A DNA stretch of 42,363 nucleotides from a virus. The DNA lies in IMG/VR virus record IMGVR_UViG_3300045141_000462, positions 1 to 42,363 of that record; one strand, 5' to 3'. Below, in pieces: positions 26,287 through 29,409 of the stretch (the first letter of the stretch is position 1; each line of letters opens with the position of its first letter). The notes under the pieces were generated by a model. That model was not told the DNA's origin and made no database searches. It saw nothing but the letters and a program-made list of their open reading frames with translations. The position numbers and the translations under genes were made by a program.

Positions 26287-26309
26287 CAACACCCTCTAAC
26301 TGTTGGTGT

Positions 26310-26348
26310 CACCTACGTTTGTGCAAGCAAGCGTAGGTGGTCTGTTTG
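26310..26348 (+). terminator. Hairpin terminator behind terminase small subunit
   Basis: CACCTACGTTTG (26310-26321) pairs with CAAGCGTAGGTG (26328-26339), 12 bp with one T-G pair and loop TGCAAG, followed by the partly T-rich GTCTGTTTG. The remaining bases up to the HNH gene (26349-26485) show no other feature. Confidence 0.55.
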
Positions 26349-26485
26349 TAACGGCCACTCAGAGCAACCCTGCCTGCCCACGGAGCCGCGGGCGGTCACG
26401 CTCACCAGGACGAGGGCCACTCCCCCACGTGCCCCGATCCGTTCGCGAGCCCGGAATCCTATACCCCAAATCTGGCACACCGCAC

Positions 26486-26953
26486 ATGAGCGAAAACAGA
26501 ATTCAGAATCTCTGTTCTACGTGCAAGCAGTGGCACTACGGTGTGGTGTGTGCTCGCTGCAGGGCGCAGGACGAAACTCGGAGGTCGCAGGACCGGACGC
26601 GGTATCAGCGCACGACTCAGCACAGCATTGTGAGTCCGGAAATGTTTCACTGCAAGCCGGCGATGTTTCACGGAGATCAGGGGTGTTATCTGTGCGGTGG
26701 AGTGGTTGAGCCGACCACGGGACTCGGGCAGGACCATGTGATACCGCGCGTGTCTGGGGGCAGCGATGAGGCAGAGAATCTTCGTCCGTGTTGTCGGCAG
26801 TGCAATCGACTGAAGGGGCGCTGGACGCTGGAAGAGTTTCAGCGACGGTGTGAGAGCGTGGTCTACGACCTCCCCGATCGACATCTCGGGCGGCCCGTGT
26901 CGCCTGATCGTGTCTGGCTCTACGAGCGCATCGTCGTTCACATGGGGTGGTGA
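26486..26953 (+). CDS. HNH endonuclease next to terminase
   Basis: A 155-aa HNH protein. It has an N-terminal zinc knuckle (CSTCKQW and VCARCR) and the HNH core: CYLCGG (Cys67, Cys70), GQDHVIPRVSGG (Asp83, His84), ENLRPCCRQCNRLKG (Asn98, Cys103, Cys106, Asn107). HNH proteins beside terminases may support packaging or be homing endonucleases. The start is set at ATG 26486, since the earlier frame is not conserved-looking. It separates the two terminase genes. Confidence 0.82.
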   Translation: MSENRIQNLCSTCKQWHYGVVCARCRAQDETRRSQDRTRYQRTTQHSIVSPEMFHCKPAMFHGDQGCYLCGGVVEPTTGLGQDHVIPRVSGGSDEAENLRPCCRQCNRLKGRWTLEEFQRRCESVVYDLPDRHLGRPVSPDRVWLYERIVVHMGW

Positions 26954-27002: not shown

Positions 27003-27179
27003 ATGCCGGCGTTGAGAGCGTTGCTGGTGCTGTTGCACGATGTGGGTGCGCAGTTGGCGTCCTCGGGGAATCGAGTGGAGCACTACTGGGGGTTGCACCT
27101 GCTCGAGGACTGGCGTGGGCTGGAGCTGCTGGCTCACCGGGCTGAGACGGAGACGGTGGTGAAAGATGCCGCCGAGTAA
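27003..27179 (+). CDS. Small hypothetical protein before TerL
   Basis: A 58-aa helical protein (LRALLVLLHDVGAQL, then WGLHLLEDWRGLELLAH) overlapping the terminase start by 14 bases. It could be a small packaging accessory protein. No family recognised. Confidence 0.45.
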   Translation: MPALRALLVLLHDVGAQLASSGNRVEHYWGLHLLEDWRGLELLAHRAETETVVKDAAE

Positions 27180-29409
27180 CAAACTGAGTCAGGTGGGCAG
27201 GCCGGCGACGGTGGAGTGGGGCACCGAAGCGTCACCGGACGAGGCGCCCTATCAACCGCACGGGGCGGCTCTGGAATTGTTTCGAAGTCGGCGTCGTGAA
27301 GTGTTGCTGAGTGGGCCGGCCGGGACCGGAAAAAGCCGGGCCTGTTTAGAGAAATTGAACCTGATTGCGATGCAGAAACCGATCCGTGCGGCCATCGTCC
27401 GGAAGACCCGGAAAAGCCTGACCCAGAGTGCCATGGCGACCCTGGAAAACAAGGTATTGCCGCGGCCGAATCAGGTCCGATTTCACGAGGGAGATCAGGA
27501 ATATCGCTACCCCAGCGGGGCTCGAATTATGGTGGCCGGATTGGACGATCCGGAGAAAATCGGGTCCACGGAATTCGACGTCGTGTACTGCCTGGTTGGA
27601 GAAACCAGCGTCAGCAGTCCGTCAACGATTGAGCGAGGGTACGATCGTGTCTATACGGGACCACTGGTCACCATCCGTACGGCCCTCGGCCACGAGCTCA
27701 CCGGTACCCCGAATCACCCGGTACTGACCGATGAGGGATGGGTCGCGCTCGGCAGTTTGCGCAAGGGCCAGCACGTAGTGAGCTGCCTTGGCGCGCAGGG
27801 GGTGCCGTCGAGTGATCCACACGTAGACGACCAGCCAGCCACGATTGCCGAGATCGTACGTACGCTGGCGCTCCTGCCGACGTCCGTCACCGAACGGGTA
27901 GAAGGCATACGGATGGACTTCCACGGCGATGGGACCGACCGCCAGATCGATGTTGTACTTGCCGTCGGCGAGCTCAAGGAGCGGGGTGGCGCCCATCCTG
28001 GTCAGCGAACGCTGAAGCACGCGGGCTTCCGGGGAGACTTTGTGTGGCCGCAACTGGCGCACGGTGGCACGTTTGACGAGGGTAGAGTCCGAGGCCTGGC
28101 GACCACGGTTGAGTTCAGCCATGCGTTCCCCGAGCACGTGCATGCGCACTCGATTGGTCTCGGATTGCACCCAACGCAGACGCGCGGCGTCTCCGGCCGC
28201 TCTGAACTTCACGTACCACCCACTCGTGCGATCCCGAACGTGTCGCAGCGCCTGGCCTTCGCTGGGCGTACGCCATCGCAATCCGCGGCTGATGAACTCC
28301 CGTTTGAATCGACGATCGCTGATCCCGATCGAGAGAGCGATCGTGCTCAATCGGCCCTCGCCGGCCAGGTAACGCTGGATCGCATCATCGACGTCAGCAA
28401 CAGCTACGAGACTCGGGGCAGGCACGTTTACAATCTCCAGACAGCTTCGGGGTATTACTTCGCCAACTCAATAGTAACCCACAACTGTCAGGAAGCTACT
28501 GAGCTTGAGGAAGACGACTGGGCGATGTTGCTCCGCGGTCTCCGAAATGGGGTGCTCAGTTATCGGCAGATCATCGCCGATTGCAACCCGAGCTCACCCG
28601 ATCACTGGCTCAAACAAAGATGCAATGCGGGCGAGTGCGAGCTGCTCGAAAGCACCCACGAAGACAACCCCATGCTCTATCAGCAGGACGGGTGGACCGA
28701 CTTCGGCAGGGAGTACATCGCCACCCTCGACAGCCTGACCGGGTTCCTGTACCAGCGATTGAGGCTCGGGCAGTGGGTGGCGGCCGAGGGCATGTATTTC
28801 ACGGAATGGGACCCGTCTCTGCACGTCTGCCCGAGATTCGAGATCCCACCGGAATGGCCGCGGTGGCTGGCCGTCGACTACGGCTTCGCCGTGCCCTTCT
28901 GCTGCCTGTGGTTTGCCCGAGAGCCCGAGACCCGAAGGATCTTCGTCTACCGAGAGCTCTACGCGGCCGGCTTGCGGGACGAGCAGCAGGCCCAGGCAAT
29001 CGTGGCTCATAGTGGGCAGGAGCATCTGAATCTCAGGATCCTCGATCCGAGCATGTTCAACCTCAGGACGGAGCAGCAGCGGCCCTCGATCGCGGCCGTG
29101 TACTGGGCGCACGGGGTCAAGCCCGTTCACCCCGGCATGAACTCGAGGAAGCAGGGGTGGGCCATCGTCAGGCGAGCGCTGGCTCACGACTCGGGACCGC
29201 CGCGATTGCAGATCCTGAATGGCTGCGCTCCCAATCTGACGCGGACGTTGCCCAGCATGGTGGTGGATCCCCTGGATCCCGAGGACCTCGCCGATACGGT
29301 GCGGGGCACCAAGACCGAAGACCACGCGCCCGATGCCTTTCGCTACGGCCTGTGTGCCGAAGCGCAGCCGCCCCGGCCCACCGAGCCGATCGCCTTGAGG
29401 TTTGGTTAG
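27166..29409 (+). CDS. Terminase large subunit with intein
   Basis: A 747-aa precursor. The ATPase part has Walker A SGPAGTGKS (residues 49-57) and a Walker B that reads DVVY-CQEATEL once the intein (142-440) is removed. The C-terminal nuclease has WLAVDYGFAVP (Asp571 in the precursor), LRILDPSMF and DHAPDAFRYG. The spliced protein is 448 aa, normal for TerL. It cuts and pumps DNA into the prohead through the portal. Without splicing the Walker B site is destroyed, so the intein must splice for viable phage. Confidence 0.92.
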   Translation: MPPSNKLSQVGRPATVEWGTEASPDEAPYQPHGAALELFRSRRREVLLSGPAGTGKSRACLEKLNLIAMQKPIRAAIVRKTRKSLTQSAMATLENKVLPRPNQVRFHEGDQEYRYPSGARIMVAGLDDPEKIGSTEFDVVYCLVGETSVSSPSTIERGYDRVYTGPLVTIRTALGHELTGTPNHPVLTDEGWVALGSLRKGQHVVSCLGAQGVPSSDPHVDDQPATIAEIVRTLALLPTSVTERVEGIRMDFHGDGTDRQIDVVLAVGELKERGGAHPGQRTLKHAGFRGDFVWPQLAHGGTFDEGRVRGLATTVEFSHAFPEHVHAHSIGLGLHPTQTRGVSGRSELHVPPTRAIPNVSQRLAFAGRTPSQSAADELPFESTIADPDRESDRAQSALAGQVTLDRIIDVSNSYETRGRHVYNLQTASGYYFANSIVTHNCQEATELEEDDWAMLLRGLRNGVLSYRQIIADCNPSSPDHWLKQRCNAGECELLESTHEDNPMLYQQDGWTDFGREYIATLDSLTGFLYQRLRLGQWVAAEGMYFTEWDPSLHVCPRFEIPPEWPRWLAVDYGFAVPFCCLWFAREPETRRIFVYRELYAAGLRDEQQAQAIVAHSGQEHLNLRILDPSMFNLRTEQQRPSIAAVYWAHGVKPVHPGMNSRKQGWAIVRRALAHDSGPPRLQILNGCAPNLTRTLPSMVVDPLDPEDLADTVRGTKTEDHAPDAFRYGLCAEAQPPRPTEPIALRFG
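27589..28485 (+). mobile_element. Intein inside terminase Walker B
   Basis: A 299-residue in-frame element. It starts with CLVGETSVSS (Cys1, block A), then GTPNHPVLTDEGW (T-x-x-H block B). At the end it has HVYNLQTASGYYFANSIVTHN (block F and the HN of block G), with Cys as the +1 extein residue (CQEATEL). The splicing blocks occupy about the first 65 and last 40 residues. The middle (about residues 66-258) shows no LAGLIDADG or HNH motif in the sense frame; instead its opposite strand is open for an endonuclease. Confidence 0.9.
27622..28425 (-). CDS. Antisense HTH plus PD-(D/E)XK-like endonuclease nested in the intein
   Basis: A 267-codon frame on the minus strand, wholly inside the intein, from GTG 28425. 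Residues 12-50 look like a helix-turn-helix (AIQRYLAGEGRLSTIALSIG, SDRRFKREF). Residues 130-205 have the VSR/PD-(D/E)XK order: SPEARVLQRSL (Glu133), KYNIDLAVGPIAVEVHP (Asp160, Glu169, His171), then a basic stretch and GWLVVYVWI. This matches homing endonucleases of the VSR/EDxHD kind. The last 60 codons overlap the sense splicing block B. A shadow frame is possible, but the recognisable domain order argues for a real gene. Confidence 0.6.
   Translation of the reverse strand: MPAPSLVAVADVDDAIQRYLAGEGRLSTIALSIGISDRRFKREFISRGLRWRTPSEGQALRHVRDRTSGWYVKFRAAGDAARLRWVQSETNRVRMHVLGERMAELNRGRQASDSTLVKRATVRQLRPHKVSPEARVLQRSLTRMGATPLLELADGKYNIDLAVGPIAVEVHPYAFYPFGDGRRQERQRTYDLGNRGWLVVYVWITRRHPLRAKAAHYVLALAQTAERDPSLIGQYRVIRGTGELVAEGRTDGDQWSRIDTIVPSLNR

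What the first reader, a model, noticed from the sequence alone, without database searches (positions are those of the whole stretch)
27622..28425. Homing endonuclease frame on the opposite strand inside the terminase intein
Inteins normally carry their endonuclease in frame between the splicing blocks. Here the sense interior has no recognised endonuclease motif, while the antisense strand holds a 267-codon frame with an HTH-like N-terminus and a VSR/PD-(D/E)XK-like core (Glu133, Asp160, Glu169, His171). The open frame lies completely within the intein. This suggests a mobile element in which one DNA segment encodes a spliced linker on one strand and the nuclease on the other.
Basis: partly seen in the sequence, partly recalled or inferred. 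Interest (0 to 1): 0.85.

Follow-up and report, generated by a model that had tools for sequence, protein, structure and literature searches.

The report
Intein hiding a nuclease gene antisense
A self-splicing protein insert in a phage DNA-packaging gene is read on one DNA strand, while the same DNA read on the other strand encodes a homing-type nuclease, and more than a hundred related phage elements share this two-strand design, which I found described nowhere for inteins.

Summary
The terL gene (27166-29409, +) carries a 299-residue intein (27589-28485: Cys1, TPNHP, HVYNLQ, THN|C). It has no endonuclease motif in the sense frame. Codon-for-codon opposite lies a 267-codon frame (27622-28425, -) encoding helix-turn-helix domains plus a VSR/EDxHD-type nuclease; profile and fold searches both reach I-Bth0305I. 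ORF length alone proves nothing here, because long antisense ORFs are common in this GC-rich window. Homology and selection do. Of 126 nuclease clusters, 125 lie wholly inside an in-register opposite-strand ORF (GC 39-71%). Substitutions follow antisense codons across the nuclease and sense codons across the splicing blocks. Synonymous codons are skewed exactly where they build an antisense start codon, ribosome-binding site and, in most relatives, an extended -10 promoter. The antisense product is predicted to fold (pLDDT 87); the sense interior is predicted disordered. Empty alleles with 92-94% identical flanks show mobility. A second nuclease family, LAGLIDADG, sits antisense in an intein at the same site in Gordonia phages, so the design arose at least twice. 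Most likely this is a mobile intein whose homing endonuclease is a separately expressed antisense gene. Cleavage, splicing and antisense expression are inferred, not shown.

The parts
27166..29409 (+). terL (large terminase) gene, host of the intein; sense ORF of 747 codons
   Evidence: Terminase_3 E 2.4e-11, TIGR01547, PHROG terminase
27589..28485 (+). intein, 299 aa, Cys1 to Asn; +1 residue Cys (28486-28488)
   Evidence: Intein_splicing E 8.8e-8; exact insertion against an empty terL allele at 92-94% nucleotide identity
27589..27786 (+). N-terminal splicing region (blocks A to B, TPNHP); under sense constraint
   Evidence: intein_Nterm match; AF2 pLDDT mostly above 90; sense-type substitution pattern
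27916..27930 (+). sense motif DFHGD, conserved in its own right; faces the antisense nuclease catalytic VAVE (about residues 166-169)
   Evidence: Synonymous skew on both strands, 119 loci; skew map
28369..28485 (+). C-terminal splicing region (HVYNLQ block F, block G, THN|C)
   Evidence: AF2 pLDDT 85-97; intein C-terminal model
27622..28425 (-). antisense nuclease gene, 267 codons, GTG start, codon-for-codon opposite the intein
   Evidence: codon-position test
28288..28401 (-). N-terminal helix-turn-helix-type region (residues 9-46; helices continue to about 125)
   Evidence: HTH Pfam families in most relatives; AF2
27814..28032 (-). VSR/EDxHD-like nuclease core (residues 132-204; invariant Y157 N158 D160 E169, nearly invariant R188)
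   Evidence: 3r3p/3hrl profile hits, Foldseek, invariants, pLDDT 77-98, mostly above 95
28423..28425 (-). start codon GTG of the nuclease, facing the block F His codon CAC
   Evidence: in relatives the His codon is CAT 81 and CAC 14 (background 42:58)
28435..28438 (-). Shine-Dalgarno-like GGAG, 9 nt before the start, facing CTC-C of block F
   Evidence: Leu codon CTC in 80 of 100 against 28% background; SD-like core in 96 of 105

Best explanation
The element is a mobile class 1 intein whose homing endonuclease is a separate gene on the antisense strand, fully overlapping the intein in exact codon register. Read with terL, the segment makes an intein: its ends form the HINT splicing fold and its interior is mostly a stop-free, predicted disordered linker. 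Read from the other strand, it makes an HTH plus VSR/EDxHD-type nuclease, started by a GTG and ribosome-binding site written inside splicing block F and, in most relatives, by an extended -10 promoter written inside block G. The nuclease would cut intein-free alleles at the insertion site, and repair from the occupied copy would spread the intein. A separate antisense transcription unit would let the nuclease be made early, apart from the late structural gene. Shown here by computation: the two overlapping frames, purifying selection on both, nuclease homology, initiation-signal codon bias, and occupied versus empty alleles. Inferred: splicing, expression, cleavage, homing and timing.
For: Family: tblastn of the antisense protein hits 101 phage records, and in every one I inspected that bears the intein the match is opposite the annotated gene; 209 and 335 relatives in two viral scans. 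Architecture: 125 of 126 clusters at 80% identity are in-register overlaps, GC 0.39-0.71. TTA/CTA/TCA: 0 of 4765 Leu+Ser codons in nucleases, against 17% outside the overlap in the same genes (30% at GC below 0.5); the free-standing Acinetobacter relative has 12 of 39. Selection: 29 independent pairs; nuclease core differences p1/p2/p3 .271/.189/.423 in antisense codons and antisense identity above sense identity in 29 of 29; in the part facing blocks A/B .310/.107/.246, with sense identity higher in 22 of 29. Fold: antisense pLDDT 86.9; sense interior 35-46. Initiation signals: CAT for His 81 against 14 CAC, CTC for Leu 80%, SD-like in 96 of 105; ATT-ATA-ACA skew giving antisense TGTTATAAT, at least 5 of 6 in 72 of 90. 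Mobility: empty terL and MuF sites. Replicate: antisense LAGLIDADG in Gordonia MuF inteins, core differences 7/1/30, 4 antisense against 30 sense amino-acid changes.
Against: No expression, splicing or cleavage data. The window's own copy has only a GTG start, a 4-nt SD and no promoter found by the consensus scan; its block G gives a weak -10 (TACTAT). The window protein alone has only marginal family hits (MTES_1575 E 0.042), so its assignment rests on the family profile. The Foldseek E-value is modest (0.042, probability 0.99). Codon-skew backgrounds come from the same genes; no set of canonical inteins was used as a control, and clusters at 80% identity are not fully independent.
Confidence: 0.87

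Rival explanations
1. The antisense frame is a non-coding by-product of sense codon bias in GC-rich DNA.
For: About ten other long in-register antisense ORFs, up to 781 codons, occur in this window; in this register only TTA, CTA and TCA block the other strand.
Against: Antisense-type substitution pattern in the core in 29 of 29 pairs; nuclease homology; persistence at 39-45% GC; confident fold for the antisense but not the sense interior; initiation-signal codon skew.
Confidence: 0.02
2. A nuclease gene merely interrupted the host gene; the sense reading is not translated through or spliced.
For: A free-standing relative beside an uninterrupted MuF gene exists in Acinetobacter phages; the sense interior looks disordered.
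Against: Sense frame stop-free in 125 of 126 clusters; Cys1 in 114 of 114, C/S/T +1 in all 114, terminal Asn conserved; 44 of 44 hit Intein_splicing; sense-type constraint over the blocks; terL and MuF are normally essential (general knowledge).
Confidence: 0.03
3. Both frames are real, but the antisense protein is not a homing endonuclease: for example a regulator, an interference nuclease against competing phages, or an inactive remnant.
For: No cleavage assay; HTH repeats also fit DNA-binding regulators; one decayed copy, REQ3.
Against: Invariant Y-N-x-D...E and nearly invariant A and R; closest structure is the homing endonuclease I-Bth0305I; patchy occupied and empty alleles in near-identical hosts; a LAGLIDADG gene takes the same antisense place.
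Confidence: 0.08

Closest known systems
Canonical mobile inteins with an in-frame LAGLIDADG or HNH endonuclease domain (e.g. mycobacteriophage TerL inteins, PMC5050341)
   Same: Class 1 splicing blocks, in-frame insertion at a conserved site of terL, occupied and empty alleles.
   Different: The endonuclease is not a domain of the intein polypeptide; it is a separate antisense gene with its own initiation signals.
I-Bth0305I and the EDxHD/VSR-like homing endonucleases; 'fractured genes' with split inteins (Dassa et al. 2009, cited in PMC12350094; paper not held)
   Same: Nuclease core related by profile and fold; an association of this nuclease type with inteins has been described.
   Different: I-Bth0305I is intron-encoded and, from memory, fractured genes put the nuclease gene between split intein halves. 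Here the intein is whole and the gene overlaps it on the other strand. The orientation in fractured genes could not be checked.
Antisense homing endonuclease genes in nuclear group I introns (I-DsqI, PMC9548176)
   Same: Antisense homing endonuclease gene inside a self-splicing element.
   Different: The intron acts as RNA and need not be translated, so only one coding frame is needed; here both strands encode protein.
ShiLan out-of-frame HNH insertion in a phage methylase (PMC11855218)
   Same: Endonuclease overlapping a stop-free in-frame insertion in a phage gene, with a poorly structured product in the host frame.
   Different: Same strand, different frame, HNH type, and no splicing element detected.

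Membership tests
Class 1 intein | N-terminal Cys/Ser, block B TxxH, block F/G with terminal Asn, +1 Cys/Ser/Thr | tested here: met
   C1, TPNH, HVYNLQ, THN|C in the window; 114 of 114 C1 and +1 C/S/T in relatives
Class 1 intein | Precise in-frame insertion relative to an empty allele | tested here: met
   Flanks 92-94% identical, ending at 27588 and resuming at 28489
Class 1 intein | Protein splicing activity | not testable with these tools
   No expression or mass data available
Canonical mobile intein | Homing endonuclease domain in frame within the intein polypeptide | tested here: not met
   No endonuclease family in the sense frame of 44 relatives; interior predicted disordered
EDxHD/VSR-like homing endonuclease | Sequence and fold similarity to the I-Bth0305I catalytic domain | tested here: met
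   Profile E 1.7e-6; Foldseek top hit, probability 0.99
EDxHD/VSR-like homing endonuclease | Catalytic Asp plus following Glu/His and further acidic residue | tested here: inconclusive
   D160 and E169 invariant, R188 nearly so; His171 variable; full EDxHD pattern not verified
EDxHD/VSR-like homing endonuclease | Site-specific cleavage of the intein-free allele | not testable with these tools
   Needs a cleavage assay
Fractured gene / split intein | Host gene and intein split into two ORFs around the nuclease gene | tested here: not met
   Single continuous sense ORF through the nuclease in 125 of 126 clusters

The most novel reading that the evidence does not exclude
A general class of two-strand selfish elements, arisen at least twice (VSR-type and LAGLIDADG nucleases), in which an intein's splicing motifs also spell the promoter, ribosome-binding site and start codon of an antisense homing endonuclease gene, and in which the nuclease active site and a conserved intein motif (DFHGD) share the same codons.
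Probability: 0.75. Interest if true: 0.95.

Novelty: new variant of a known kind. Interest (0 to 1): 0.9.

Why it matters
Inteins are taken to carry their endonuclease as a domain of the same polypeptide. This family breaks that rule in over a hundred phage lineages and probably resolves a conflict: the host gene is expressed late, while homing may need earlier expression. It is also among the clearest cases of two proteins from different folds encoded codon-for-codon on opposite strands, with separate regions where each strand is the constrained one and a motif where both are. It implies that many inteins catalogued as endonuclease-free may carry an antisense gene, and it gives laboratory-tractable phages (E. 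coli phage Snoke, Gordonia phages Lennon and Fosterous) in which to test this.

Tried and rejected
ORF length as evidence: rejected, since similar antisense ORFs abound in the window. Single-protein searches of Pfam, NCBIfam, PHROGs and PDB: only marginal hits, which is why family profiles were built. An 18-member alignment gave no conserved stretch for collection scans. DFHGD as a mere echo of the nuclease motif: rejected by codon skew. A search for DFHGD inteins lacking the nuclease found nuclease matches in all 80 top viral loci; among six further phage records one copy had a decayed nuclease and one carried LAGLIDADG instead. Promoter scan of the window copy: no hit. A control set of bacterial inteins could not be drawn. 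Ten literature searches of open-licence papers found no description; the key 2009 paper is not held.

Full report
WHAT IS THERE. The window is a 42,363-base virus record. terL runs 27166-29409 (+) and contains an intein at 27589-28485 (299 residues) with Cys1, block B TPNHP, block F HVYNLQ and THN|C. Close relatives carry the same terL without it: flanks are 92-94% identical to locus L275 and break exactly at 27588/28489. The empty allele has Val where the occupied one has the +1 Cys. On the other strand, 27622-28425 is a 267-codon frame in exact codon register, wholly inside the intein. Its length alone means little, because about ten other in-register antisense ORFs of comparable or greater length occur in the window.

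THE ANTISENSE FRAME IS A GENE. tblastn finds relatives in 101 phage records, and in each one inspected that bears the intein the match lies opposite the annotated gene, usually a MuF/head-morphogenesis gene. Collection scans add hundreds of loci. After clustering at 80% identity, 125 of 126 nuclease ORFs are wholly covered by an opposite-strand ORF in the same register, at GC from 39% to 71%. In this register the only forbidden codons are TTA, CTA and TCA: they make up 0 of 4765 Leu+Ser codons in the nucleases, against 17% outside the overlap in the same genes and 30% for loci below 50% GC. The outside figure is somewhat inflated because each ORF boundary is itself such a codon. A free-standing Acinetobacter relative uses them 12 times in 39.

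SELECTION ON BOTH STRANDS. In 29 independent pairs, nuclease-core differences per antisense codon position are .271.189.423, the signature of an antisense-coded protein, and antisense identity exceeds sense identity in all 29. In the last 45 residues, which face splicing blocks A and B, rates are .310.107.246, the sense signature. The predicted antisense protein folds well (mean pLDDT 86.9, core mostly 95-98), while the sense intein has a confident HINT fold at its ends and a disordered interior (pLDDT 35-46 over most of residues 127-255). One stretch is constrained on both strands: the nuclease catalytic A-V-E faces sense F-H-G, with Ala GCC in 115 of 119 (background 42%) and Val GTG in 109 of 111 (background 16%). 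A skew map shows the sense constraint limited to this motif, a nearby helix and the splicing blocks.

INITIATION SIGNALS WRITTEN IN THE SPLICING BLOCKS. The nuclease start codon faces the block F His: CAT 81 against CAC 14 (background 42:58), giving ATG. The block F Leu is CTC in 80 of 100 (background 28%), giving GGAG/GAGG 7-9 nt upstream; an SD-like core is present in 96 of 105. Block G uses ATT, ATA, ACA far above background (57 of 79, 38 of 66, 23 of 40 against .29.20.13), spelling the extended -10 TGTTATAAT on the antisense strand, while most neighbouring positions are little skewed. The window copy has the GTG and GGAG but only a weak -10.

IDENTITY OF THE NUCLEASE. The family profile hits I-Bth0305I (3r3p, E 1.7e-6) and 3hrl (1.1e-5); 47 of 61 relatives hit REase_MTES_1575, and most hit HTH families. 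The best PDB fold match is I-Bth0305I. Y157, N158, D160 and E169 are invariant.

MOBILITY AND A SECOND ORIGIN. In Jerseyvirus phages the MuF site is empty or occupied in near-identical hosts. In Gordonia phages the same MuF site is empty (L361, L363, L364), or holds the VSR-type element (Fosterous, Vivi2, Angelicage, Sedona), or holds an intein with an antisense LAGLIDADG nuclease (Lennon, Nordenberg, Barsten and others; PHROG 5046 E 9e-15, I-MsoI E 1.3e-3). Between Lennon and Barsten the LAGLIDADG core differs at 7, 1 and 30 antisense codon positions, with 4 antisense against 30 sense amino-acid changes. A copy in phage REQ3 has a broken nuclease but an intact intein, as expected if the nuclease is dispensable to the host.

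MECHANISM. Most likely the antisense nuclease cuts intein-free alleles and repair copies the intein in; the intein then splices out of TerL or MuF. Separate antisense initiation would free the nuclease from late-gene timing, and late sense transcription could in turn silence it; both are hypotheses. Cleavage, splicing and expression were not testable here.

NOVELTY. Ten literature searches of the open-licence library found no intein with an antisense endonuclease gene. Nearest are antisense endonuclease genes in group I introns (PMC9548176) and an out-of-frame HNH insertion (PMC11855218). Subscription papers, including the fractured-genes paper, could not be read, so prior description is not excluded.

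Noticed in passing
L357:1986-3065 (-) (Gordonia phage Lennon MuF intein): A different intein at the MuF site carries an antisense LAGLIDADG nuclease, an apparently independent origin of the same architecture.
   Followed up: yes
L014:455-1345 (+); L020:2992-3885 (+) (Acinetobacter phages): A free-standing relative of the nuclease sits in opposite orientation just past an uninterrupted MuF CKCR site, with a stop-filled sense frame; possibly an ancestral or escaped form.
   Followed up: partly
L355:1995-3056 (Rhodococcus phage REQ3): The antisense nuclease is broken by a stop and its N-terminus is not recognised, while the sense intein remains intact, as expected for decay after fixation.
   Followed up: partly
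window 27916-27930 and relatives: The DFHGD motif is conserved on the sense strand while the opposite nuclease VAVE is conserved too; its role in the intein is unknown.
   Followed up: partly
window 26303-26953 (+): Just upstream of terL lies an HNH endonuclease gene (PHROG 16726 E 7e-14), perhaps a free-standing homing endonuclease near the packaging genes.
   Followed up: no
L350 to L352, L361, L363, L364: Near-identical phages differ by presence or absence of the intein at one MuF site, a ready set for homing crosses.
   Followed up: partly
L008:616-1968 (virus Rctr197k): The element also occurs in a gene that looks like a dCMP deaminase but is annotated as head morphogenesis protein; the annotation seems to be driven by the intein.
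   Followed up: no
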